Below, piece by piece: positions 8,253 through 27,941 of a stretch of DNA of 38,938 bases. How positions within the stretch are numbered: the stretch's first letter is position 1; the number at the start of each line of letters is the position of its first letter. The position numbers and the translations under genes are program-made. Origin of the DNA: Actinomycetota bacterium (GTDB lineage: Bacteria; Actinomycetota; AC-67); contig JAIVGO010000016.1 in the NCBI GenBank assembly GCA_020201525.1, positions 1-38,938 on the forward strand. Reading direction: 5' to 3'. The notes beneath the pieces are model-generated. The model made no database searches. It had not been told where the DNA came from and was given only the letters and a program-made list of their open reading frames with translations.

Positions 8253-8271
8253 TGACAAAAGGGAACCTTGA

Positions 8272-10521
<2,250 letters not shown>

Positions 10522-13902: not shown

Positions 13903-16900
13903 TCAGCAGAGGTAGCTCGTCACACTAAGCGATGAGTTCGAGATCCATGTCGTGAGTGACGTGTTGTCGCAGTTGATGTAATTGCTCTTGCAACACGCGA
14001 ATCCGAGCGACCAGCCGCCGAAACGCGAGTCCGCCCAGAAATTGGACCCCATCGTCTGCTGGATCCCGCTCCCCGCAGCGGTATCACGTGACTTGACGGT
14101 TCCGCTGGCGCGGTAGTGGCACGCGCCGGTGTCGGAGGATTGCGGCGAGGTTGCGCACCCGGGCGACGAGTGGTCGGTCGTGTTCTCGTAGATATAGCCG
14201 TTCAGCGAACCGCTCGTTCCGGTATCCAGCTCGAAAAGACGGACGCGGAGGTTTGTGATCTGGGTGTACTTCGTCGCAGTGCTCGGCGAACACGTCGCGT
14301 TGTTGGGACGCTGGCAGTCGAAGACGTTCATCGTCATCGGCTCACTTGCGGCAATCCGCTGTGAACCCCCGTTCGGCGCGTAGCGCCGGTTGCCCGCCGT
14401 CGCACCGGTGCACACGCCGTCGGAGGCGCTGCACACCTCGAAGTGCGCCGGCAACGGAGAGCTGATGTCGGTGTGCAAGTTCCACCGATCGCCGGAGTTG
14501 GTATCCATCGTCAGGCTGGTCGTCGGCTGTGACGCGTCCCAAATCATTTTCGTCCCGGTGGGGATATCGAACTGCTGGATGCTGAGTCCCGGCACGAGAC
14601 GGTCAATCGTTCCGCGCAGGTACGCCACTCGATTTGCCACCGCGTCGAGTTGCTCGGTATCGAATTTGAAGATTCGCCCGCCGATGCTGTCGATGGAGAA
14701 GTTCGGCGACTTCGCCGACGCCGAGCGCAACCCGGTGATGCGCGCGAAGGATACGTAGCGGTCTGAGAGATCTTCGAGCAGCAGCCCGTCGTATGCGGGG
14801 TCGATCTGATCGTCGGGCCCGCTGGTCAGCTGGAATTGCACGAGCCCGACGGTTCCGCCGTGCGCGTCGAGCGTGACGGTGCCGTCGGTTGCGAACGACG
14901 TGTCGATCGCGAGGGGCAGCGATTGCAGGAGAACGTGCGCCGCGGTTGCGCGGCCGGCGAGCCCGTCCGGGTTGCTTGCGTCGAACGCAACCGAGCTCAC
15001 CGGTGCCGAAGCCGAATACGAGAAGGAGGTCACGCTCGCCAGCGAGATGTTGAACATGGGCGCCAGCGTGTTGATGTCGGCAGTGAGCGTCGCGAGCCCG
15101 GCACCGCTCGCCGCCGGCTCGCTGATGTTCATCACGAACTCGCGTCCTCCGTTGGTCGCGAGCTTCAGCGTGGGCAACGCTCCCCGGCCGATCGTGGCCG
15201 ACTCGAGGCCGCTCAAGCGTGCGAAGATCACATAACGGTCGGGAAGATTTTCGACCAGGACGCCATCCTTGGCTGCATCGATCGAGTCGTCGGGACCACT
15301 CGTCAGTTGCACCTGGAACATTCCAAGCGTTCCGCCGTGCGCGTCTAGGGAGAGGCTTCCGTCGGATGCAAGCGTGGCGTCGAATGCCGACGGCAAGCTC
15401 TGGATGACGACGTGGGCGGCGGTTGCGCGCGACGACAACAGACCGCCCGTGTCGCTGAGGTCGAGCGTGATAGAGCCGACGGCTGCCGAAGCCGTGTACG
15501 TCACATTGGTCGCGCTCGCAAAAGAAAGGTCGATGCTCGCCGGCAGGCTGGTGATCGTGGCGAGGGCCGTCGCGCTTCCCGTTCCGCTGGGTGACGGCGC
15601 CTGAATGTTCGCGACGAACGTGCGCCCGCCGGTCGTCTGCAGCGACAAGGAGGGAAGGGTTCCCTGCCCGATCGTTGCTTTCTGGAGACCGGTCAGACGG
15701 GCGAAGACCACGAACCGATCGGCTAGGTCTTCGAGGAGCACGCCGTCTTTCGAGGGCTCGATCTGATCATCCGCTCCGCTCGTAAGCTGTGCTTGGAAGA
15801 GGCCGACCGTTCCGCCGTGCGCGTCGAGCGTTGCGCTCCCGTCCGTGCCAAGGGTCGCGTCGAATGCAAGCGGTAGGTTCTGGATGAGGACGTGCGCGTT
15901 CGTCGCCCGGCCGGAGAGTCCATCCGGATCAAATGCGTCCAGCGTGATCGAAGAAACGGGTGCCGACGCCGAATACGTGAAGCCGGTCGCGCTCGAGAAG
16001 GCCATGTCGAGATTCGCCGGAACATTATCGACGGTCGCAAGCGCGGTAGCCGTTCCGTTTCCGTTTGCCGAAGGAACGCGGATGTCGGCGACGAACGGAC
16101 GGCCTCCCGTCGTCGACAACGAGATCGACGGGAGCGTCCCGGCGCCGATCGTCGCCACCTTCACCCCGGTGATGCGCCCGAACGCCACGAAACGATCGGA
16201 GAGATCCTTCACGAGGATTCCGTCGTGCGCGGGATCGATGCGCTCGTCGGGCCCGCTCGTAAGCTGCGCCTCGAACAGCCCGAGCGTGCCGCCGTGCGCG
16301 TCGAACGAGAGCGATTGCTGAGTGCCCGAAAACGTCAGATCGACGGCGGCCGGAATGTCATTCAGCAGCACGTGCAGCGCAGTGGCCCGGCTTCCGGCGA
16401 AGCCTGCCGGATCCGTAGCGTCGAGCGTTGCGCTGCCAATACCGGCCGCGCCCGAGTACGACACCGTCTGCTGCGTCGTCGACGCGGCGAACCGGAACGT
16501 CGCGGGCAGGTCGTTGATGTGCGCGTCGGTAACCGCCGAGCCGTTGCCGATCAAGACGTGAAATGGCCCCGGCGCCATGGTCGCCGCAACGAGGAATGGG
16601 TCGCCGGAGTCGATCTCCGCCGGTGATGCGAGCCCGAGGAGCTGAAACGACAACGAGCTCGCGTCGCCGTTCCGGTCGGCGAAGAGATACGCCGGATCGC
16701 TGCGGAACGCGGGCGTGCGTCCGGTGCCGAGGCCCACCTTCGTCAACCCGATCGGCGAGCTCGTGTCGAGCGCGGCGTGCGTGGGCGAGTCCTGCGTCAG
16801 GCTCATGCTCGTCGGCACGTCTTGAAATCTCAAGTACGTGCTCTGGGAGACGGCGGCGCCGTTCGTCTCTCGCCCGTTCACCTCGATGGCGCTCACGCGC

Positions 16901-17742
16901 GCAGCGGCCGAGTAGGTCCACGATTGCGAACCCGTCTGCGGCGTGCCGGCGAGTGTTAGGGACATCGTCGCCGGCACCTTGTCGACGGTCGCGTCCAGAT
17001 GCCGGGCTCGAGCACCTTGCACGTCGTCCATGACGATTGTCGCCGTCGTTGCGACGTTGCTCGAGAGGTCAGCCCTTTGCTGGCTAAGTGTTGGCGCCGA
17101 CGCCGAAGAGCTGCTCAGGAAACCGAGGTGAGCGACCGTCGGAACGGGCGCATAGGAAACACGTGCAGTAATGGGATCAAGGTGCGCGCCGTTCTGATCC
17201 GGAGTGTATGCCTCCCCTGTGATGGAGATCGAGGAACCCGGCGCGGCCGTTTGCAGATCGAGCGAGAAGGTCGTGAGCCGGTCGGCGCCTCCGAGTATCG
17301 CGGTCGCGGAATAGCTCATCGGCGCCGTGCTCGACAGGGCGTCGTAACCGAACGCGAACCGGACTGGTGACGACGTCCTCTGGATAAACCGGTAAGCCGG
17401 CGGCTTGCGGACGTCGGGCAGATCGGCGACGACGGCAAGCGGTAACGGGCTCGGCGCGCCGGGAAGCGTCATGACGCTGAGTGTCGCGCGCCCGATGTCG
17501 GTCGAAAGTTGCACGAGGATGTCGGCGCCACCGACGCCGGTGAGCGCGGAATGGTCGGCGTCGACGAGCGCCGGAATACCGGAATACGTCTGCTGGTCCG
17601 TCGTGATGATCTGTCCTGCCGGGTTCTTGTACGACGCGTGCAGCGTGTAGGCAACCGGGTCGGTGGGGGCGGCGTGCGCGGCCGGGCTCGCCAGCAGCAG
17701 CGCCACGCCCGGGAGCGTCAACTTCCACGGGATCCGTCTCAT
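13903..17742 (-). CDS. Secreted repeat protein A (four approximately 160-aa units, ten-Cys C-terminal domain)
   Basis: A 1279-aa secreted protein of no family known to me. The signal peptide is residues 1-24 (AAHA|A). Residues 27-470 form an N-domain shared with protein B (DPVAYTLHASYKNP, ADILVQLSTDIGRATLSV, FAFGYDALSSTAP). Four copies of an approximately 160-aa unit follow, marked by LDAHGGT-GLFQ-QLTSGPDD and DRxVxFARxTGL, with the marker Asp at 481, 640, 800 and 959. The C-terminal domain (about 1040-1279) has ten cysteines (1104, 1111, 1143, 1151, 1196, 1208, 1250, 1251, 1258, 1279), all matched in B. There is no LPxTG motif, membrane anchor or catalytic motif. Composition (Ser, Thr, Ala, Asp, Gly) suggests beta-rich solenoid or Ig-like units. 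It is the last gene of the operon, and GGAG lies 8 bases before ATG 17742. Confidence 0.9.
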   Translation of the reverse strand: MRRIPWKLTLPGVALLLASPAAHAAPTDPVAYTLHASYKNPAGQIITTDQQTYSGIPALVDADHSALTGVGGADILVQLSTDIGRATLSVMTLPGAPSPLPLAVVADLPDVRKPPAYRFIQRTSSPVRFAFGYDALSSTAPMSYSATAILGGADRLTTFSLDLQTAAPGSSISITGEAYTPDQNGAHLDPITARVSYAPVPTVAHLGFLSSSSASAPTLSQQRADLSSNVATTATIVMDDVQGARARHLDATVDKVPATMSLTLAGTPQTGSQSWTYSAAARVSAIEVNGRETNGAAVSQSTYLRFQDVPTSMSLTQDSPTHAALDTSSPIGLTKVGLGTGRTPAFRSDPAYLFADRNGDASSLSFQLLGLASPAEIDSGDPFLVAATMAPGPFHVLIGNGSAVTDAHINDLPATFRFAASTTQQTVSYSGAAGIGSATLDATDPAGFAGSRATALHVLLNDIPAAVDLTFSGTQQSLSFDAHGGTLGLFEAQLTSGPDERIDPAHDGILVKDLSDRFVAFGRITGVKVATIGAGTLPSISLSTTGGRPFVADIRVPSANGNGTATALATVDNVPANLDMAFSSATGFTYSASAPVSSITLDAFDPDGLSGRATNAHVLIQNLPLAFDATLGTDGSATLDAHGGTVGLFQAQLTSGADDQIEPSKDGVLLEDLADRFVVFARLTGLQKATIGQGTLPSLSLQTTGGRTFVANIQAPSPSGTGSATALATITSLPASIDLSFASATNVTYTASAAVGSITLDLSDTGGLLSSRATAAHVVIQSLPSAFDATLASDGSLSLDAHGGTLGMFQVQLTSGPDDSIDAAKDGVLVENLPDRYVIFARLSGLESATIGRGALPTLKLATNGGREFVMNISEPAASGAGLATLTADINTLAPMFNISLASVTSFSYSASAPVSSVAFDASNPDGLAGRATAAHVLLQSLPLAIDTSFATDGTVTLDAHGGTVGLVQFQLTSGPDDQIDPAYDGLLLEDLSDRYVSFARITGLRSASAKSPNFSIDSIGGRIFKFDTEQLDAVANRVAYLRGTIDRLVPGLSIQQFDIPTGTKMIWDASQPTTSLTMDTNSGDRWNLHTDISSPLPAHFEVCSASDGVCTGATAGNRRYAPNGGSQRIAASEPMTMNVFDCQRPNNATCSPSTATKYTQITNLRVRLFELDTGTSGSLNGYIYENTTDHSSPGCATSPQSSDTGACHYRASGTVKSRDTAAGSGIQQTMGSNFWADSRFGGWSLGFACCKSNYINCDNTSLTTWISNSSLSVTSYLC

Positions 17743-17826
17743 TGCGGCTTCTCCGGTGCACAGAGGACGCTCCGCCCCTTCGGTGACTGTTGCCGGCCGA
17801 AGGGAGGAGCCATCATCCGGCCCTTC

Positions 17827-18825
17827 TTACGGTGATCCTGCATGGCTGAGCGTGTACGCCGAACCGTCCGCCAGCACGACGTTCGCCGCGAAATTCCGCG
17901 TAGCGGTGTCGAAAACACCGTTCAGCGTCAGGTCGGCGTCCTGGTAGCTGATGGAGATCACGGTGTCGCCGCACCCGGTGATGTCGCACTGCGACGAAGG
18001 CGGGCTCGGCGCAGCCGGCACGTCCGGCGGCACGTTGACTACCGGCACCGGGTTCGGGGTCAAGCATCCCTGCGGCCCGTTCTCGAGGACGTACGGCAAG
18101 AAGTTCGCGCCGGTCGGGTCGGTGCAGACACCACTCACCGCCGGCGGGTTCGGAGGGTTCGGTGTGCACGTCGCCGGGTCCACGGCGGGATCGCACGGCC
18201 CCGACGGAGCGCTCGGGGCGTTGGGCACGCCTTGGAAGCTCATGTTCGCGTCGCTCTTGATGCCGCTGTCGAACGCGCCGATAAGGACCTCGAAGTTCTT
18301 CAAGAACGGGTTGATCTTGATTGTCCCCGCGCCGTTATCGCCTACGAAGTCGATCCAGTTTTTGAGACTGACCTGGATGTCGGAAAGCGTGGAGTTAACG
18401 CTCCCGTAGCAGAAGCCACCGGCGAGGGTGGCGCGGCGATCGGTGGCGGTGCTCTTAACGTGAAAGAATCCGTCCAGGGGTTCGTTGCGCGAGTCCCACG
18501 TCGTGCTCCAGCCGCCGTCGCCCGTGTGGGTTTGGGAGAAGACCACCACGGAGTCACGGTCCCGCGTAACCGTGATGGTTGAGCTCGCCTTCGGCGCACC
18601 GAGATATTGCTGCAAGGGAGCGCAGGTGGCATCGGATTGGCCGCCCCGGTTCTCGTTGATGAAAACCACCCCGCTAACGGTCGCGCCGTTCGACGGCGTG
18701 GTGATCGCGGCGTGCGCGGGCATGACCGCGATGGTCGCCGCCACGATCGCCACGAGCACGACGATGCCGGCGCTCACACGCAGCACGAACTTTCTTCTCC
18801 GATCGAGCGATGATCTCCCGCTCAT
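17827..18825 (-). CDS. Secreted 332-aa protein with Cys/Pro linker and a C-terminal module shared with the Ig-repeat protein
   Basis: The basic N-terminus and hydrophobic segment (SAGIVVLVAIVAATIAVMPAHA|A, residues about 18-39) form a signal peptide or anchor. Residues 40-190 look like an Ig-like fold with cysteines (ATVSGVVFINENRGG, FSQTHTGDGGWSTTWDSRNE, GFFHVKSTATDRR). A Pro/Cys-rich stretch follows (SGPCDPAVDPATCTPNPPNP). The last 45 residues (SISYQDADLTLNGVFD..., ending AYTLSHAGSP) resemble the end of the Ig-repeat protein at 25.2-25.4 kb. No enzyme motif is seen. ATG 18825 follows GGGGGAG. It lies 30 bp after the 293-aa gene and 84 bp before protein A, so it belongs to the same transcription unit. 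Function unknown. Confidence 0.85.
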   Translation of the reverse strand: MSGRSSLDRRRKFVLRVSAGIVVLVAIVAATIAVMPAHAAITTPSNGATVSGVVFINENRGGQSDATCAPLQQYLGAPKASSTITVTRDRDSVVVFSQTHTGDGGWSTTWDSRNEPLDGFFHVKSTATDRRATLAGGFCYGSVNSTLSDIQVSLKNWIDFVGDNGAGTIKINPFLKNFEVLIGAFDSGIKSDANMSFQGVPNAPSAPSGPCDPAVDPATCTPNPPNPPAVSGVCTDPTGANFLPYVLENGPQGCLTPNPVPVVNVPPDVPAAPSPPSSQCDITGCGDTVISISYQDADLTLNGVFDTATRNFAANVVLADGSAYTLSHAGSP

Positions 18826-18855
18826 GTGCTGCTCCCCCTTGTGCTGTTTGTGGAA

Positions 18856-19737
18856 TTACGGAACGTCCAGGAAACCGACGTTGGCCCCCAAGACTGGATG
18901 GTTGTCGAAGATCGCTGCGTCTGCGCCGCCGTAGAGGTATCCGCCGCCAAAACCGAAGCAGTAGCCGAGGAAGCAGAACGAAGTCGTGATGTTGGCGTAT
19001 TGATAGACGTGGCCGAGGAAGTCGAGCGACGTGTCCGACGGCAACCCGATCCACTGGAACGGCAGAGGGGGTGTCGGTGGCACTGGCGAAGGTAGTGACG
19101 GCAGGAGCGAATACGGGACGGGAAGGTACGGGCCGCTCGAGCCGGTGTCGACGTTCGATCCGAGAAAGTAGAAGCCGGCGGCGTGAAATCCGGTCCAGCC
19201 GCCGCCACTGATGTGATAGAGAGGTCCGCCGACGTCGTAGGCGACCAACGGGAAGCCACCCGATGTCGCGCATGTGACGGGGTCGCCGCCGAGCGCCGTG
19301 CACAGCGCCGCATCCGCCGGCTCGACCGGCGGGGTCTCCGGGACCACCGTCGACTTCTTAACGGTGTAACCGACCGTCGTATCAGTTCCGGCGTAGAGCC
19401 AAACGTGGAAGATGTCTCCGACCTCGTACTCAGGTGTGCCCTGCGGGCCCTTCTCTTTCGACCCCGACGCCGGAATCCGCGAAAGTGCGGATTCGATTGC
19501 GTCGCGGAACCGCATCGATCTGGTGGACACTGTGCCGTCGGAGCCGATCGTTTGGAGCTTTGCCGTGGCGTTGAAGAAGCGGTAGGGGCTTATCCCGTAC
19601 GACTTTGCGAGCGAGATCGTTCGCTGACGCAACACGTCAGCCATCGTCTTCGGACGCGGCGCTGCGTGCGCGCCCATGGTCGAGAATGCCAGCGCCGCGA
19701 GCGTAGCCGCCACCAGAAGCCGCTTGGTCCGGGTCAT
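18856..19737 (-). CDS. Secreted Gly-rich hypothetical protein (293 aa)
   Basis: The signal peptide is residues 1-25 (LLVAATLAALAFSTMGAHA|A). A charged helical segment follows (MADVLRQRTISLAKSYGISP and SMRFRDAIESALSRIP), then a region with EYEVGDIFHVWLYAGTDTTVGYTVKK. After a Pro-rich bridge (LPSLPSPVPPTPPLPFQWIG) the C-terminal part is rich in Gly, Tyr and Phe with a Cys pair (SFCFLGYCFGFGGGYLYGG). No family is recognised. The sticky aromatic/Gly end could support self-assembly or burial against a partner; that is inference. The ribosome site is GGGAGAGGGG before ATG 19737. It sits 43 bp after repeat protein B and 30 bp before the 332-aa gene, inside the secreted-protein operon. Confidence 0.82.
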   Translation of the reverse strand: MTRTKRLLVAATLAALAFSTMGAHAAPRPKTMADVLRQRTISLAKSYGISPYRFFNATAKLQTIGSDGTVSTRSMRFRDAIESALSRIPASGSKEKGPQGTPEYEVGDIFHVWLYAGTDTTVGYTVKKSTVVPETPPVEPADAALCTALGGDPVTCATSGGFPLVAYDVGGPLYHISGGGWTGFHAAGFYFLGSNVDTGSSGPYLPVPYSLLPSLPSPVPPTPPLPFQWIGLPSDTSLDFLGHVYQYANITTSFCFLGYCFGFGGGYLYGGADAAIFDNHPVLGANVGFLDVP

Positions 19738-19780
19738 GCCGTTCCCCTCTCCCTAGTTGTCTGCAGCGCTCGCAAACCGA

Positions 19781-22700
19781 TCAGCAAATGAACCCGCTCA
19801 CTCCGATCTTGATGTTGAGGAGCCAGACGTTGAGCGAGGCGCTGTCGCAGTTGATGTAGTTCTTCTTGCAGCACGAGAAGATGTACACGGTCCAACCGCC
19901 TTGGCGCTGGTCGGCCCAGAAGCTTCCGTTGCCGAACGTCTGCTCGATCCCGGTGCCGGCGCTCGTGTCGCGTTGCTTGATCGAGCCGCCGAGGATCCGG
20001 TTGTGGCACGCGCCGGAGTCGGCGGCTTGCGGACTCGCCGCGCAGCCGTTCGTACCATGCTCCGAGGTGTTCTCCCAGATCATGCCGGCGGAGTCGCTTC
20101 CCGCGTTCTCCTGCTCGAAGAACTTGACCCGCCAGTTGGAGATCTGGAAGTACTTCGTACCACTCGACGTGTCGATGCAGGTTGCGTTCAACGGTCGCTG
20201 GCAGTCGAAGACGTTGATCGTGACGTTCTCCGACGCATGGACCGAGGTGCTGGACGGGCCCGAGGTTTGCGAGCGAGTGTCGCTTGCCGGGCGGTTGGAG
20301 CACGCGAACGTGTTACCCGACGAGCAGATGTCGAGGTGCACCGGAAGCGGTGCAATGCCGGTGTGAATGTTCCAGCGGTCGCCGGAGTTGGAGTCCATCG
20401 ACAGGCTGTTCGTGCGCACGTCGGCGTTGTAGGTCGTCACCGACTTCGTTCCGCCGGGCACCGCGACGTCGGCCAGCGACACGTTGATGTGCCGCACCAA
20501 GCGATCGAGCGTGATCCGCAAGTACTCAGTCTTGCCGGATGTGTTGAGCTGTTCGGTCTCGACCTTCAGCACTCTGCCGGCGTCGCTGTCGATCGCGAGG
20601 TTCGGCGCCTTCGCAGACGCGGTGTACAGGCCGGTGGTGCGGAAGAAAGCCTCGTACCGGTCCGCGAGGTCCAGGAGCATGATCCCGTCCTGCGCGTCGG
20701 AGATGTACGTGGTGTGATCGTCGACACAGGTCGAGGGTCCCCCGGAACAGCTCGCGATGAGGAATTCGATCTGCCCGATCTTCTCGCCGTGCGCGTCCAG
20801 TGTGACGGTGCCGTCGGTCGCGAACGAAACGTCGAAGCCGTGCGGCAGCGAGGTGAAGCTCGCGTTCAGGTGCTTCGTCTTCGTGACCCACGCTCCGCCG
20901 CCGGCGACGCCGTCGGGGTCGAACGAGTCCAGGGTGATCGAGCCCACCGGGTCCGACGCTGTGTAGTTGAAGTTCGTCGAGCTCGTGAACTTGATCGACA
21001 GGCTGGCGGGGAGCACGTTGATGTCCGCAGTGGTCGAGGCGCGCCCCGTCGGCTTGTCCTGCTCGAGATCCACGACGAACTCCCGCCCGCCGGTCGTGTT
21101 CAGGGTCAGCGCCGGTGGCGGCCCTTGGTCCACGACAACTTTCCTGAGGCCGGTGACACGCGTGAAGACGACGTACTTATCGGTCAAGTCCTCGACGAGG
21201 ATGCCGTCCTTCCCGGGGTCGATCTGGTCGTCGGGACCGCTCGTGAGCTGAACTTGGAAAAGCCCGAGGGTGGAGCCGCCGGCGTCTATCGTGGCTGCCG
21301 TGCCTCCCCGACCGAACGACAGGCTCAGCGAGGTCGGAATCGACTCGAGCCGCAAGTGCGCCGTCGTCGCCCGTCCGGAAATCCCGTCCGGGTCGAAGGC
21401 GTCGAGGGTCGCGAGGTCCATCACGTCGGACCCGGTGTAGGTGACGGTCCCGGCGGCGGCGTTGAAGTGGATCTCGATGCTGGGGACGAGGTGGTCGAGC
21501 GTGGCGTCCAGCGTGGCCTCGTGGTTGTTTGAGTTGAGCGTGTCGAAGCTGACCTTGAACACACGCCCCGCGGCGGTGTCCAGGCGAAGGCCGAGGTCGT
21601 CGCCGGAGGTGGCAACGACTTTCTTCAAACCCGTGATTCGCGAAAAGACCACGTATTTGTCGGCGAGGTCCTCGACGAGCACGCCGTCGTACGCTTCGTC
21701 GATCCGGTCGTCCGGCCCGCTGGTGAGCTGTAGCTCGATGAGGCCCAGCGTCTGGCCCTTGGCGTCCAATGAGACCGAAGAGCTGCTGCCGCCGAAGGCG
21801 AGATCCAGCGTCGTTGGGATGTCCTGCATGAGCAGGTGCATGTCGGTCGCCCGGCCGGAGACGCCGGCGGGGTTGTGCTGGTCGAGCGTGAGCTTCCCCA
21901 TCACGGCCGACCCCTCGTAGCTGATCGTTCCCGCCGAGGGCGAGCCGGAGATCTTCACGGTGTGCGGGAGGTTGAGGAACCACCCCTCCGTCGTGGCGGC
22001 GCCGTCCACCTGGAGCAAGTGGAACGGCCCCGACTTCAACGTTGCGCCGATCACGAACGGATCGCCGGAGCCGACTTCGGCGGACTCGAGCTGCTTGACC
22101 TGGAAGGCAAGGGATTCCACGGTTCCGTCGTTGAAGGCGTAGAGATACTGGTCGTCGCCGAGGAACTTCGGGGCGCCCCCTTTCGCCAGCCCGGCGCGAA
22201 CGACGCCGATTGCGGAGTCGCTCTGGAAGGTCGAGTGCGTCGGAGAATCCTGCACGAGCGTCGCCGTGAGCGACATGTCTTGCAGCTCGAGGATGGACTG
22301 GTTCAGGACCGTGCTCGTCCGGGTCTCGGTTTCCTTGATCAGGATCTCGTCCACACGATCACTCGCGCGGTAATTCCAAGTTTGCTGACCGGTTGCCGCG
22401 ACGCCCGTCAGGACGAGCGACATCGTGTTCGGAATCTTGTCCACCGTGGCGTCGACGCGGTTTTCATGCGTTCCTTGGATATCTTCGATGACGACGACGC
22501 CGGTCGTCGGGATGTCGCTGGCGAGGTCGATGCTCGCCTGGCCGGCGCCGATGCCCGGTCCGATGTCCGAGCCGCTCAGGATGCCGAAGTGTCCGACGGC
22601 GGGGACGGGCGTGAAGTCGATTCGCGCTTGAATGGGATCGATGTGCTCACCGTTGTCGCCGAGCGTGTACACGGATCCAGTTACGCCGAGCGTGTCGCCG

Positions 22701-23194
22701 GGCACGACCGTGTGCAGGTCCATCGAGAAGCTCGTGACCCGATCGGCGCCGGCAATCGCGAGCGTCGCGTCGTACACCTGCGGCGCGGTGGAATTGAGAG
22801 CGTCGTATCCGAACGCGACGCGCAACTTGTCGTCGGGCGGCCCGAGCAGCGGAAGCGGGATGTCCTTGCGTGGATCTTGCAGGATCGCCTCGACCGACAA
22901 AGGAAAGTCCTCGAGCGAGTCGGGCAGCTTGGAGACGCGCAGGGTGGCCCGGCCGGCGTCGATCGTCATTTGGACGAGGATGTCCGGCACGGAATCGCCG
23001 GTCATGTCGACGAGCTCCGGCTTGACCTCCAGTGAATCGACCGTCACTTCGTGAAGCTGGGCCTGCGGATCCTTGTAAACCGCGTGGATCTTGTACGCGA
23101 TCGGGTCGGTGACATCGGATGCGCTCGCCGACGACAGTGTGAGGATCGCTATGCCCGGCAGGAGCAAGAGCCCCAATCTCATTCGCTTCGTCAC
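19781..23194 (-). CDS. Secreted repeat protein B (three approximately 160-aa units, ten-Cys C-terminal domain)
   Basis: An 1137-aa paralogue of protein A. The signal peptide is residues 1-25 (LLLLPGIAILTLSSASA|S). The N-domain includes LVDMTGDSVPDILVQMTID (61-79), which resembles the calcium-binding loop of VCBS/FG-GAP repeats; the loop is degenerate in A. Three units follow, with marker Asp at 477, 637 and 800 (QLTSGPDDRID, DGVLVEDLADKYVVFSRITGL). The third carries an insertion with Cys816 and Cys823 that A lacks. The C-terminal domain has ten cysteines (957, 965, 998, 1006, 1051, 1063, 1108, 1109, 1116, 1137) spaced almost exactly as in A, the last being the final residue. The start is a GTG at 23194 behind AGGGAGG. 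It lies 31 bp after the NHL gene. No enzyme motif; function unknown. Confidence 0.9.
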   Translation of the reverse strand: MTKRMRLGLLLLPGIAILTLSSASASDVTDPIAYKIHAVYKDPQAQLHEVTVDSLEVKPELVDMTGDSVPDILVQMTIDAGRATLRVSKLPDSLEDFPLSVEAILQDPRKDIPLPLLGPPDDKLRVAFGYDALNSTAPQVYDATLAIAGADRVTSFSMDLHTVVPGDTLGVTGSVYTLGDNGEHIDPIQARIDFTPVPAVGHFGILSGSDIGPGIGAGQASIDLASDIPTTGVVVIEDIQGTHENRVDATVDKIPNTMSLVLTGVAATGQQTWNYRASDRVDEILIKETETRTSTVLNQSILELQDMSLTATLVQDSPTHSTFQSDSAIGVVRAGLAKGGAPKFLGDDQYLYAFNDGTVESLAFQVKQLESAEVGSGDPFVIGATLKSGPFHLLQVDGAATTEGWFLNLPHTVKISGSPSAGTISYEGSAVMGKLTLDQHNPAGVSGRATDMHLLMQDIPTTLDLAFGGSSSSVSLDAKGQTLGLIELQLTSGPDDRIDEAYDGVLVEDLADKYVVFSRITGLKKVVATSGDDLGLRLDTAAGRVFKVSFDTLNSNNHEATLDATLDHLVPSIEIHFNAAAGTVTYTGSDVMDLATLDAFDPDGISGRATTAHLRLESIPTSLSLSFGRGGTAATIDAGGSTLGLFQVQLTSGPDDQIDPGKDGILVEDLTDKYVVFTRVTGLRKVVVDQGPPPALTLNTTGGREFVVDLEQDKPTGRASTTADINVLPASLSIKFTSSTNFNYTASDPVGSITLDSFDPDGVAGGGAWVTKTKHLNASFTSLPHGFDVSFATDGTVTLDAHGEKIGQIEFLIASCSGGPSTCVDDHTTYISDAQDGIMLLDLADRYEAFFRTTGLYTASAKAPNLAIDSDAGRVLKVETEQLNTSGKTEYLRITLDRLVRHINVSLADVAVPGGTKSVTTYNADVRTNSLSMDSNSGDRWNIHTGIAPLPVHLDICSSGNTFACSNRPASDTRSQTSGPSSTSVHASENVTINVFDCQRPLNATCIDTSSGTKYFQISNWRVKFFEQENAGSDSAGMIWENTSEHGTNGCAASPQAADSGACHNRILGGSIKQRDTSAGTGIEQTFGNGSFWADQRQGGWTVYIFSCCKKNYINCDSASLNVWLLNIKIGVSGFIC

Positions 23195-23225: not shown

Positions 23226-25091
23226 TCAAATGGTTGCTCGGTACGCTTCTGGTTGTGTCGGCAGGCAGCTGGCCTCCGGGTCGTTCAAGTCGCACGGCGG
23301 CGGCGGCAGGCAGCTTCCCGGATCACTTGGGTCGCACGGCGGTTCGGTAGGCGGCATGCAGCTCGCCGGGTCGCTCACGTCGCACGGCGGGGGCGGCGGC
23401 TGTCCCAGACAGCTCGCCGGGTCGCTCACGTCGCACGGCGGCGACGGTGCTCCACAACTCTGCGGGTCGCTCACGTCGCACGGCGGCTGCGGTGGCGCGG
23501 GGAGGCACGCAAGGGGATCCGACGAGCACTGGATCCCCGGCTGCGCCTGCGCCGCCGGGGCGAATGACTGCGTGCGGTTTCCAGTCTTCTCGGCGACCCA
23601 GATCGTCCCCGGCTTGCTGCTCCCGGGCTTCATGATTGCGATCCCTGCGGGGGCCTGCATGCTTCCCGCGGCCGTTCCGGAGCTTCCCCACGCCTCGATG
23701 AACGCGCCGTTTCGTGCGAAACGCTGGATGCGGTTGTTCCCCGTGTCCGATACGAAGACGCCGAGCGCGTTGGCGGCGACTCCGCTGGGGGCGCTCGTGC
23801 ATCCGTTCGCCGTTCCGGCTCCGCCCCAAGCGCCGGCGAGCTCTCCGGTCAACGTGAACTTCTGGATCCGGTTATTGCCGGTGTCGGCTACGTAGAGATA
23901 CCCGCCGTGGTACGCGACGCCCGTCGGCCCGGACAATTGACCGGGATCGTGGCCGGAGGTGCCGATGACGGCGACGGACGCGCCGGCGGGCGTCACGATT
24001 TGAATCCTGTCGTTCTCGGAATCCGCGACGACGAGCTGGTAGTCGGCAGACCCTGTGCCGGTGGGGATGACTGCCATCCCACGCGGGGACGAGAACTGTC
24101 CGGGCGCGCTGCCCCCAGTGCCGAACTTGCCTCCGAAGAAACCGCTGACGCCGAAATACTGGATCCTGTTGTTTCCGCTGTCCGCGACGTAGATCGTGAA
24201 GCCGTTCGGCGAAACAGCGACCCCGGACGGCGAGGAGAACTGGCCATCACCGGAACCGAGCGATCCCCACTTCGACAATGGAAAGCCGCCGGCGGGATCG
24301 AGGCGCAGGACCCGGTTGTTACCGGTGTCCGCGACGACGACGTCGTTCTGATTGTCGATTGCCACCGCGGTCGGCCCGCCCAGCGAGGTGTTGCTCGGCG
24401 TGAGCGGCACACCGGGGCCGTATCCTGCTGCGGCTGCCGGCGGCAGAGCGTCCTGATACACCGGGCGCCGCGCCCCCTCGGTTTTCGGAGCCAGCGGCGT
24501 ACACGGCATCTGCGGCGCGGCCGGAATGGTGCTCGGTATCGGCGGAACCCCATCGGCGACCGGTTGAACCGTCACACTTATGACGAGGTCGTGCGAATCC
24601 ATCCATGCCAGGTCTTCTGCGAGCGGAGCGAAGTGCTCGTCGAAGGTCTGCGGGTACGTCCCAAGCATCGGTGCGGTGAGCGTGACGAGGAACACGCCGT
24701 ACGTGCTTGGTGCGACGGCCGGTGTTTCCATGCTCACGCGCCGGCCGTCGATCCACGCGGGGTCGGATGCCGCGGCGAAAGCGCTGACGCGGTCGCGAGG
24801 ATTCACCGTCGCGAGCCGAACTGGGTGGCCGTCGCTCGAGGTGCCATCGGAAAACCACGTCGCGGCGCCGACGTTCTTGAGTACGACGGCAACCGTCGTC
24901 TTTTCGCCGGGGTGCAGCGTGGCCGGGATGGGATTGTTCTTCGTTGTGAGCGACCAGTCGTAATCGGCGGCGTGCGCGCTCATCGGGGCAGCCGCCGAAG
25001 CGAGGCAGAGGGCAATCAACAGATGCCGCACGGGCCGCCGGAAGCAGCGCGCGTGACGCGCGCTGCTCGCGGCTGCCTTGTGCCCTCTCAC
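23226..25091 (-). CDS. Secreted NHL beta-propeller protein with Cys/Pro repeat tail
   Basis: About 621 aa. After a signal peptide (HLLIALCLASAAAPMSAHA|A) comes an Ig-like domain of the NBR1-like kind seen on bacterial surface proteins (VLKNVGAATWFSDG, LATVNPRDRVSAF, FAPLAEDLAWMDS). Six NHL-type blades follow (VVVADTGNNRVLRL, IYVADSGNNRIQYF, LVVADSENDRIQIV, LYVADTGNNRIQKF, VFVSDTGNNRIQRF, IWVAEKTGNRTQSF). The tail is a tandem of PPCDVSDPxSC-type units of 14-17 residues. NHL propellers usually bind proteins, carbohydrates or RNA. I choose the GTG at 25091, which has AGGAG five bases upstream overlapping the stop of the preceding gene, over a GTG at 25109 with no such site. The 8-bp gap implies translational coupling. 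Confidence 0.9.
   Translation of the reverse strand: MRGHKAAASSARHARCFRRPVRHLLIALCLASAAAPMSAHAADYDWSLTTKNNPIPATLHPGEKTTVAVVLKNVGAATWFSDGTSSDGHPVRLATVNPRDRVSAFAAASDPAWIDGRRVSMETPAVAPSTYGVFLVTLTAPMLGTYPQTFDEHFAPLAEDLAWMDSHDLVISVTVQPVADGVPPIPSTIPAAPQMPCTPLAPKTEGARRPVYQDALPPAAAAGYGPGVPLTPSNTSLGGPTAVAIDNQNDVVVADTGNNRVLRLDPAGGFPLSKWGSLGSGDGQFSSPSGVAVSPNGFTIYVADSGNNRIQYFGVSGFFGGKFGTGGSAPGQFSSPRGMAVIPTGTGSADYQLVVADSENDRIQIVTPAGASVAVIGTSGHDPGQLSGPTGVAYHGGYLYVADTGNNRIQKFTLTGELAGAWGGAGTANGCTSAPSGVAANALGVFVSDTGNNRIQRFARNGAFIEAWGSSGTAAGSMQAPAGIAIMKPGSSKPGTIWVAEKTGNRTQSFAPAAQAQPGIQCSSDPLACLPAPPQPPCDVSDPQSCGAPSPPCDVSDPASCLGQPPPPPCDVSDPASCMPPTEPPCDPSDPGSCLPPPPCDLNDPEASCLPTQPEAYRATI
23289..23486 (-). repeat. 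Coding tandem repeat for the Cys/Pro tail (PPCD units)
   Basis: The 12-mer GTCGCACGGCGG recurs at 23289, 23331, 23379, 23430 and 23475. The spacings (42, 48, 51 and 45 bp) are all multiples of three, so the repeat is constrained as protein. Each unit encodes roughly PPCDVSDPxSC plus a Pro-rich spacer. DNA identity is highest among the three central units, which suggests recent unit duplication. Confidence 0.85.
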
Positions 25092-25099
25092 TGCCGCTC

Positions 25100-27941
25100 C
25101 TATGGACACACCGGATCACCGATCGGGTTCGGCGCGCAGCTCGGAACGGCGGGCTCCGGGGTCGGAGGCAGGCTCGGCGAAGGCGTTTCGGATGGCAGCA
25201 CGTTCGGCAAGCAGCCCTGCGGAACGTCGCACGGGGGCTCCGGGAGCGCAGGCGTGTGCCGAAGGGCGTAGGTCCCCGACGCTGTTGCGACGGTTGCCGC
25301 GAAGGATCCGGAGTCGAGATCGAACACGCCGACGACCGTCAGCGAGCCGTCGTTATATGCGATGAGGACGCTCGACCCCAGGACGAGCATGTTCGCGTCG
25401 TCGATGGTGCCCGACGAGTCGGAGCCGTCGCCGCTCTTGAACGCGAACTGCTTCGTGCTCGTGTCGATGAAGATCGAGCCTGCTTGGTCGTCGTCGACGA
25501 AGGCGTACTCCCAACCGATCGTGAAGCTCGTCGAGTCACCGCTCGCGCCGTAGAAGCCGTCGTCTGCGAATGACGCAGCCGCTGTGTAGTCCCCTGAGTT
25601 CTGGTCCAGCGGCGCCGTCACTGAAGCCTTTCCGTCGGGACTGGTGGTGGGATCCGGATCGCCCGCGAAGGAGCCAAGCGTGAAGTGGACCGGCTTGCCC
25701 GCGAGCGGCGCGCCCGAAAGCGTGTCGGTCAATGTCGCCGACATCGTGGCGGTGCCCCCGTGATCGCCACTCGTGTCGCCGTCGTATGTGAGCGTGGTCG
25801 GGCGCTTGCGAGTCGTGAAGCCGTCGGAGCCGGCGGACGGCTCGTAGTAGTCGTTACCGGTGAATAGAGCGGCTGCGGTATAGGCGCCGGGCGCGTCGTC
25901 CAGTGTCACCGTCGTAGATACCGTCCCGTCCGAGTCGCTCGCCTCAGGTGGTATCACCGCGCTCCCCAGGGAAAGGCCCACATCAACGCCTTCGATGGCG
26001 GCGCCGCTGTCCGTGTCTGTGATCCTCGCGGAGAGGGCAGCATCGTTCTTCCAGAAGCCTTCGGTGTCGCCGGTGTAGCTGAGGGTGGTCGCGCGCTTGA
26101 GGATCGTGAATCCCGCCGCGTCCGAGCTCGAGTCGTACAGGGCATCTCCGGCCGATGCGGATACCGTGTAGTCGGCGGGAACGTCGCCGAGCAGCAGCGG
26201 AGCGGCGGCGATGCCGAGTGCGTCGGTCGTGGTCGTCGCGCTTCCGCTCCCGAGCGTGAAGGTAACGCTCGCGCCCGCGGCCGGCAGACCCTTGCGCACA
26301 TCGGTCACCGACGCTCGGAGGTTCGCGAGATCGTTCCACTTCCCCGACGCGTCACCCAGGTACACGGTCGACGTGGGGCGCTTGTGAATGGTGAACGGGG
26401 CGCTGCCCGATCTGTCGGCAAACCCGTCCTCGCCCGCATAGCTCGCGGAAACGGTGTAGTTGCCGGGGGTGTCGGACAGGTCGATGGTCGTGGCTGCGAG
26501 ACCGTTCTCGTCGGTCGTTGCCGTTGCCGACTGCGATCCCAGCGTGAAAGTCACCGTCCTGGCTTGGAGCGGCACGCCGTGAGACGTGTCGGTCAGGGTC
26601 GCAGAAACCGCTGCGGTTTCGAGCCCGAAGCCTTCGGTGTCGCCGGAGTATTCGATGGAGGTCTGCGCATCGAGCTTGACGGTGAAGTCTTGGGACGCCG
26701 AGTTGCCGGCGTTGTCGGTCGCCGAAACCGAGACGGTGTGCTCGCCGGGATCCGTGACGTCGGTTGCCGAACCGCACGAGATCGGGTTGCCGTCGAGGGT
26801 GCAGGACTTTGTAGCGATGCCGCTGGTGGCGTCGGCGGCGTCGGGGGAGACACTCAGCGTCCCACGGCACCACCCATTGTCGCCGGGCAGCGAGCATGAC
26901 TCGTTCGCCCCCAAGCTCGGTGCGGTCGTGTCGACCTTGATCGCGCCCGAGACCGGCGCAGAGGCGTTGTTGGTCCAGTCGGTCGCGCTCGCCGCCACCG
27001 CAAAGGTTCCGTCGCCCGTCGTGACCGGAATGGGGGCACCGGACGTGTACGTCCCCGAGGCGCCGCCCGTCACGTTGTAAGTGCGCGACTTGACCCCGAT
27101 GCCTTGGGCGTTGCCCGAGCCGTCGTTGTTGTCGGTGATGGTCACGGTGTTGGTGGCCGAAAGACACCAGCCGTTGGTCCCGGCGACGTTGCACGCCGGC
27201 ACGACCGAGCTCACGACCGGCGCGACGACGTCCTTGTAGCGGATGCCGATGTTCTGCGGTGGGGTGCCGGTGGTCTTGAACAGTTGCAACCCGGATGTGG
27301 TTGTCGGCCTCGAAGAGCGCGTATTCGAAGTTGTAGCAGGTCGCGCTCAAGCTGCCGGCGTGGTTGACGGAGCTGAACTGGATGCGCATCACGCGGTTCG
27401 GCGAGGTCCCCGTCGTCTGGGTGTAGACGCCGGTGGCGCTGTTGCTGGCGCAGGTCAGGGAGTTGTGCCGGGAGGGGTCCATGTCGTTCCACATCGCGGC
27501 CACCATGGCGTTGGGCACGCCGGTGTTGGGCAAGTCCGCGCCGTAGCAGGTCGTGCACGGCCCGGCCAAGAAGGTGATGAACCCGTTTGAGCTCATGTAC
27601 ACCGTCGGATTCGAGGAGTCCCCGGCGATGCCGTTGGTCGAGATGCCCGAGGACCAGTGAAACGGCCAGTTCGGCTGCCCGGCGGCGGGGCCGAGGGGAA
27701 TGGTCACGTCGTCGCTGACGCTGAGCTTGCACGGTGCGCCGCAGGTACCACGGATGTCGACGTTCCCGCTCGTGCCGATGCCGTCGTTGACGTTGATCCC
27801 TGCGGCATCGGTGGAGTTGAAGGCGTTCGCCGGCTGGACGGCAAGCAGCGCCAGGCCCAACGCCAGGCACAGGAGCTTTGCAACGCCGCGCTTTCTTGTC
27901 GCAGCGTGAACAGACGAACGAGATGCCCGAAAGATCTGCAT
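25100..27941 (-). pseudogene. Secreted Ig-repeat surface protein, interrupted by a single-base frameshift
   Basis: About 946 aa if repaired. The signal peptide ends VQPANA|F. The N-domain (about 35-215) resembles nidogen-like extracellular modules (NGFITFLAGPCTTC, VAAMWNDMDP, ATCYNFEYALFEADNHIR). The frame breaks at the CCC run 27290-27292; removing one base joins NHIR to LQLFKTTGTPPQNIGIRYKD. Two Cys-containing segments follow (CNVAGTNGWC and CSLPGDNGWC), then four Ig-like units of about 95 aa, of which the last three begin KRPTSTVYLGD, KRATTLSYTGD and KRPTTLTYDGD. The end module (VLIAYNDGSLTVVGVFD) resembles that of the 332-aa protein, and a Pro/Cys tail closes it. The length is one base over a codon multiple. 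ATG 27941 follows GGAGG. It is the first gene of the operon. Both halves keep normal codon use, so the lesion is either recent or a sequence error. Confidence 0.8.

What the first reader, a model, noticed from the sequence alone, without database searches (positions are those of the whole stretch)
13903..23194. Paralogues A and B differ by one whole approximately 160-aa repeat unit
The unit's marker Asp (in LDAHGGT or its equivalent) falls at residues 481, 640, 800 and 959 in A and at 477, 637 and 800 in B. The spacing is therefore 159-163 residues, with four units in A and three in B, while the N- and C-domains match. This is unit-wise gain or loss between two genes of one operon, and suggests a length-tunable rod. 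Each unit has a conserved acidic loop (TSGPDDxIDPxxDG) that might bind calcium.
Basis: seen in the sequence. Interest (0 to 1): 0.7.

Follow-up and report, generated by a model that had tools for sequence, protein, structure and literature searches.

The report
Secreted proteins with variable repeat number
Two neighbouring genes make exported proteins that share the same ends but carry four and three copies of an uncatalogued beta-strand repeat, and relatives carry from none to about thirteen, so protein length has changed by whole units over a long time.

Summary
Marker Asp residues lie exactly where stated (A 481/640/800/959; B 477/637/800), and a profile built only from other loci finds the same 4 and 3 units (best of 1000 shuffled sequences 5.6 bits, real units 101-161). 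The extra unit of A is homologous to the rest and of the middle, B2-like type. The event is old: units are 52-66% identical in DNA and fourfold sites are near chance. A third paralogue in the same genome has 9 canonical units; a sister genome has 3, 2 and 0; nine further proteins in the phylum have 2 to 13 and a tenth only partial units. No Pfam, NCBIfam, PDB-sequence or convincing fold match was found. The calcium-loop idea is weak: 7 of 19 units keep all the acids. Rod shape is unproven and present-day tuning unlikely. Best reading: an undescribed all-beta repeat forming the middle of exported proteins, three of whose genes adjoin an NHL-propeller gene; function (spacer or scaffold) is inferred.

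The parts
13903..17742 (-). Gene A, exported repeat protein, 1279 aa, four canonical units
19781..23194 (-). Gene B, exported repeat protein, 1137 aa, three canonical units
16042..16512 (-). A unit 1
15565..16035 (-). A unit 2
15085..15555 (-). A unit 3 (with A2 the closest pair in A, 63% aa identity)
14608..15078 (-). A unit 4 (counterpart of B unit 3)
16546..16929 (-). Divergent unit 0 of A (aa 272-399)
   Evidence: E 3e-11
21506..21976 (-). B unit 1
21026..21496 (-). B unit 2
20501..21007 (-). B unit 3, with a two-Cys insertion in place of the acidic loop
22016..22393 (-). Divergent unit 0 of B (aa 268-393)
   Evidence: E 8e-7
16930..17742 (-). N-terminal domain of A with signal-peptide-like start
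   Evidence: signal peptide judged by eye
22394..23194 (-). N-terminal domain of B with signal-peptide-like start
   Evidence: signal peptide judged by eye
13903..14607 (-). C-terminal part of A: partial unit plus Cys-containing domain ending in Cys
19781..20500 (-). C-terminal part of B: Cys-containing domain ending in Cys
23226..25109 (-). NHL beta-propeller protein just upstream of B
   Evidence: PF01436, E 1.2e-32; homologues next to C and D
25100..27289 (-). Ig-like (Big_3_5) protein, probably frameshifted at its 5' end
18856..19737 (-). Exported protein P0004, conserved in the homologous cluster
   Evidence: 31%, E 3e-22
17827..18825 (-). Exported protein P0003, conserved in the homologous cluster
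   Evidence: 33%, E 4e-14

Best explanation
A and B belong to an undescribed family of exported proteins in which a tandem array of about 150-165-residue all-beta units sits between a conserved N-terminal domain and a conserved Cys-containing C-terminal domain. SHOWN: unit homology, 4 versus 3 canonical units, 0 to 13 units among relatives, and that the extra unit of A is of the middle type. PREDICTED: each unit is twelve strands with no helix. INFERRED: array length changed by in-frame duplication and deletion of whole units long ago and was then fixed, so that different paralogues are spacers or scaffolds of different length, exported with an NHL propeller and an Ig-like protein to form a surface or matrix assembly.
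For: Marker spacing exact. Leave-out profiles find 4 and 3 units, shuffles 5.6 bits at best. Third paralogue C in the same genome (2041 aa, 9 canonical units) beside its own NHL gene; homologue D (3 units) beside an NHL gene. Tandem pair E (2 units) and F (no unit) with matching ends. Unit counts 2-13 in nine more proteins. Same 12-strand pattern twice in the two-unit model, mean pLDDT 82.6, pTM 0.78. Back-segment tree: A4 with B3 98/96, A1-A3 together 98/97 with B2 next to them 89/84. Saturated fourfold sites: A2-A3 27 of 61, chance 0.37. Gene order Big-like, NHL, unit protein, P0004, P0003 shared with another genus.
Against: No rod shape or partner contact was shown; the full-length model failed (mean pLDDT 42.5). 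No sortase motif at the C-terminus and no strongly hydrophobic stretch outside the N-terminal region, so anchoring is unknown. NHL adjacency holds for B, C and D only; the motif scan found none in the E/F locus, and in the ten distant loci only one single match each in two. Strand faces are amphipathic, which also suits a lipid-binding groove. Whole-unit and front-segment trees are poorly resolved.
Confidence: 0.5

Rival explanations
1. The units form a continuous hydrophobic groove like the AsmA/TamB beta-taco, and the array carries lipids or other hydrophobic matter; unit number then sets the reach of the conduit.
For: All-beta repeat whose strands mostly have one hydrophobic and one polar face; weak structural rows include LptG/LptF-type and LolA chains; the TamB beta-taco fragment spans residues 975-1139, about the size of one unit (PMC11014939, passages seen).
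Against: No Pfam match to such families; Foldseek best E 0.11 and no Z of 5 or more; no obvious membrane anchor beyond the signal-like start.
Confidence: 0.12
2. Ligand-binding array: each unit binds sugar or calcium through the TSGPDDxIDP loop, and unit number sets avidity.
For: The loop is among the longest strand-free stretches of the model (residues 88-98 and 248-258), and six of the seven A/B units carry the acids.
Against: All acids are kept in 7 of 19 units only, distant units lack them, and B3 replaces the loop.
Confidence: 0.15
3. Freely tunable length: repeat number still changes between strains by recombination, as in Periscope Proteins.
For: Wide range of unit numbers, 0-13; F looks like E with the array deleted.
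Against: DNA identity between units is 52-66% and fourfold sites are near chance, far below the highly similar repeats that the Periscope paper describes.
Confidence: 0.06

Closest known systems
Periscope Proteins (SasG, Rib, Sgo_0707 SHIRT arrays; PMC8201768, passages read)
   Same: Exported proteins with a tandem array of folded repeats whose number differs while the ends are conserved.
   Different: Those have highly similar DNA repeats and vary between strains; here the A/B units are 37-63% identical in protein and 52-66% in DNA, no LPXTG near the C-terminus, and variation is between paralogues and genera.
AsmA-like / TamB beta-taco, repeating beta-groove proteins (PMC11014939, passages read)
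   Same: All-beta repeats with amphipathic strands and similar unit size.
   Different: No sequence match, no significant fold match, exported without an evident membrane anchor.
OspA-type single-layer beta-sheet
   Same: Top (but weak) structural rows: Foldseek E 0.11, VIA Z 4.4 at rmsd 8.1 over 163 residues.
   Different: Scores are within background; strands here are amphipathic rather than polar on both faces (the OspA feature is recalled).
Bacterial Ig-like repeat proteins (Big_3_5)
   Same: Tandem beta domains in an exported protein; one such gene lies in the same cluster.
   Different: A and B match no Ig-like model; the unit is about twice as long.

Membership tests
Periscope Proteins | Tandem array of folded domains in an exported protein | tested here: met
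   (fold predicted; export by signal-like start judged by eye)
Periscope Proteins | Long, highly similar DNA repeats | tested here: not met
   52-66% DNA identity among the seven A/B units; definition from passages
Periscope Proteins | Repeat number differs between strains | not testable with these tools
   one genome per species is held
Periscope Proteins | C-terminal LPXTG wall anchor (as in Sgo_0707) | tested here: not met
   no match in A-D; matches in other members lie far from the C-terminus
AsmA/TamB repeating beta-groove | Match to an AsmA/TamB-type sequence family | tested here: not met
   no such Pfam match at E 1 for A and B or E 0.5 for six relatives
AsmA/TamB repeating beta-groove | Continuous hydrophobic groove along the array | not testable with these tools
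   coordinates of the model are not available; strand amphipathicity only
AsmA/TamB repeating beta-groove | Fold match to the solved beta-taco | tested here: inconclusive
   not among the listed rows
OspA-type single-layer sheet | Significant structural match | tested here: inconclusive
   best E 0.11, Z 4.4
Bacterial Ig-like repeats | Pfam Ig-like match in the units | tested here: not met
   only sub-threshold SprB (A) and DUF5975 (B)
Calcium-binding acidic-loop repeats | Acidic loop conserved in each unit | tested here: not met
   7 of 19 units keep all acids; absent in distant units

The most novel reading that the evidence does not exclude
The unit is a new beta fold: a repeat that stacks into an open, amphipathic sheet of up to about 150 strands, secreted as a hydrophobic groove or conduit whose reach is set by unit number, in a group of bacteria for which I know of no bridge-like lipid carrier of this kind.
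Probability: 0.1. Interest if true: 0.7.

Novelty: new member of a known kind. Interest (0 to 1): 0.38.

Why it matters
It defines a domain family that is absent from the family libraries searched and gives a ready series (0, 2, 3, 4, 9 and more units between related ends) with which to ask what array length does in an exported protein. The general phenomenon, gain and loss of tandem units, is well known.

Tried and rejected
Calcium-loop unit signature: rejected as a family feature. Recent duplication or assembly collapse: units within A are only 58-66% identical in DNA, so collapse is unlikely. Gene conversion between A4 and B3 (27 of 41 fourfold sites alike; windows at A949-1069 23 of 35) is a mild excess among many windows and was not pursued. 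Mosaic origin of D3 and C8 (front like internal C units, back like terminal units): trees lean that way (front pair C8+D3 86/86; back split of the internal units from all others 100/100) but AU tests give p 0.29, 0.35 and 0.14, so it stays a suggestion. Internal half-unit repeat: hhalign E 2.9e-4 but probability only 41% over 31 columns. Full-length model of B: unusable. PDB-sequence hit 1sgv (a tRNA pseudouridine synthase, E 1.5e-4) with the wide alignment was judged a chance match because the narrower alignment gave none; it was not examined residue by residue. Viral-structure search: best E 0.14. Plasmid, phage and viral-contig searches: no relatives. Absent rows for TamB or AsmA in the fold lists prove nothing. 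A literature search with six terms around NHL, tandem repeats and these taxa (listing only) gave nothing on this family; that is not proof of absence.

Full report
WHAT IS THERE. Genes A (window:13903-17742, minus) and B (window:19781-23194, minus) encode 1279 and 1137 aa. A profile made only from units of paralogue C and homologue D finds four units in A (127-149 bits) and three in B (101-161 bits); the best score among 1000 shuffled versions is 5.6 bits. The ends match: 48% identity over 1108 aligned pairs. Both proteins also have a divergent unit before the array (A 272-399, E 3e-11; B 268-393, E 8e-7) and there are weak partial matches after it in A, C and D, so the full totals are 5 and 4.

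WHICH UNIT IS EXTRA. A2 and A3 are the most alike units of A (63% protein, 66% DNA). By segment, A3's best match within A is A2 in all three; A2's best is A3 in the front, A3 tied with A4 in the middle, and A1 in the back (66 versus 59%). In the back-segment tree A4 pairs with B3 (98/96), A1-A3 form one group (98/97) and B2 stands next to it (89/84); the whole-unit and front-segment trees are poorly resolved. So the last units correspond and the surplus unit of A is of the middle type; gain in A is favoured over loss in B but not proven. Fourfold sites are near chance for most pairs (A2-A3 27 of 61, chance 0.37; the exception is A4-B3, 27 of 41), so the event is ancient.

THE WIDER FAMILY. The same genome has a third paralogue C on another contig (L015:5216-11341, 2041 aa, nine canonical units plus one divergent). 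The sister genome G002, whose contig is on record as Acidobacteria bacterium NC_groundwater_1527, has D (1188 aa, three units) and a tandem pair E (910 aa, two units) and F (547 aa, none); F matches both ends of E at about 60% and lacks what lies between. Searches found units in 2 of 5 genomes of the family, 4 of 396 genomes drawn from the phylum with each of two profiles, 6 of 101 relatives of G120 and 2 of 101 relatives of G288; these sets overlap. Counted with the wide profile (at least 100 of 152 positions, divergent units included), the 16 proteins examined have: G120 13, G423 11 and 9, G436 10, C 10, A 5, B 4, D 4, G414 4, G429 4, G461 4 and 3, E 2, G288 2, a third G461 protein 0 full and 3 partial, F 0. 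The wide profile was itself built from units of most of these proteins.

STRUCTURE. AlphaFold2 on A2-A3 with 10 rows gave mean pLDDT 82.6 and pTM 0.78: twelve strands per unit, the same pattern twice, no helix. Most strands have one hydrophobic and one polar face. Foldseek found nothing under E 0.1 in the PDB and the best VIA row has Z 4.4 (OspA variant, rmsd 8.1 over 163), with porins and an LptG-like chain at 4.0-4.1; this is background. Viral structures: none. No coordinates were available, so shape was not measured. The whole-protein model failed.

CONTEXT. Gaps between the Big-like, NHL, B, P0004, P0003 and A genes are -10, 31, 43, 30 and 84 bases on one strand, so co-transcription is likely but inferred. 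The order Big-like, NHL, unit protein, P0004-like, P0003-like is repeated in G002 with a subtilase-like gene inserted (the subtilase is named from its sequence by recall, not by a search); C also follows an NHL gene. An NHL motif scan of 15 sources found clusters beside B, C and D only (D's locus was scanned twice, as L016 and L018). Whether D's cluster also ended in an A-like gene cannot be told, as its contig ends there.

CALCIUM AND TUNING. All acidic positions of the loop are kept in 7 of 19 units (A1-A4, B1, B2, D3); C3-C6 and distant units lack most or all of them. Known variable-length proteins depend on highly similar DNA repeats (PMC8201768, passages); these units do not qualify.

VERDICT. 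Observation right, extended from 4 versus 3 to a 0-13 series; interpretation half right. The repeat is undescribed in the libraries searched, while the phenomenon is a familiar one.

Noticed in passing
window:25100-27941 (minus): The Ig-like (Big_3_5) gene seems split by a frameshift near 27289: a signal-peptide-bearing start lies in one frame (27941 down) and the repeats in another.
   Followed up: partly
window:17827-18825 and 25100-27289: P0003 and the Big_3_5 protein share a short C-terminal motif (46% over 39 residues, E 6e-5), perhaps a common sorting or docking tag.
   Followed up: no
window:23226-25109, 25100-27289, 17827-18825; L016:9167-11983: Proline-rich tails with repeated CDPxDPxxC-like Cys pairs in several proteins of the cluster.
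   Followed up: no
A about 56-76, B about 58-75; also C-F and distant members: N-terminal domains share a VDxDxxxxxD-like stretch followed by I/V/L, which resembles a calcium-type loop (resemblance recalled, not tested).
   Followed up: no
L017:5443-8175 and 8259-9902: Tandem paralogues E and F: F keeps both ends and lacks the array; the junction seems to join DSAG of the first unit to the like position of the last partial unit, as an in-register deletion would (read by eye).
   Followed up: partly
window:11651-13789 (plus): One ORF matches alpha/beta hydrolase (residues 45-283) and glycosyltransferase family 28 C-terminal domain (552-694), an unusual fusion.
   Followed up: no
window:34403-37342 (minus): Penicillin-amidase family protein (E 7.9e-100).
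   Followed up: no
window:13500-28200: Terminator-like sites are fewer than in shuffles (1 against mean 9.4, sd 3.7).
   Followed up: no
window:23226-25109: The NHL protein matches the scytonemin protein ScyF model (E 1.6e-45) but far below its cut-off (156 against 350 bits).
   Followed up: no
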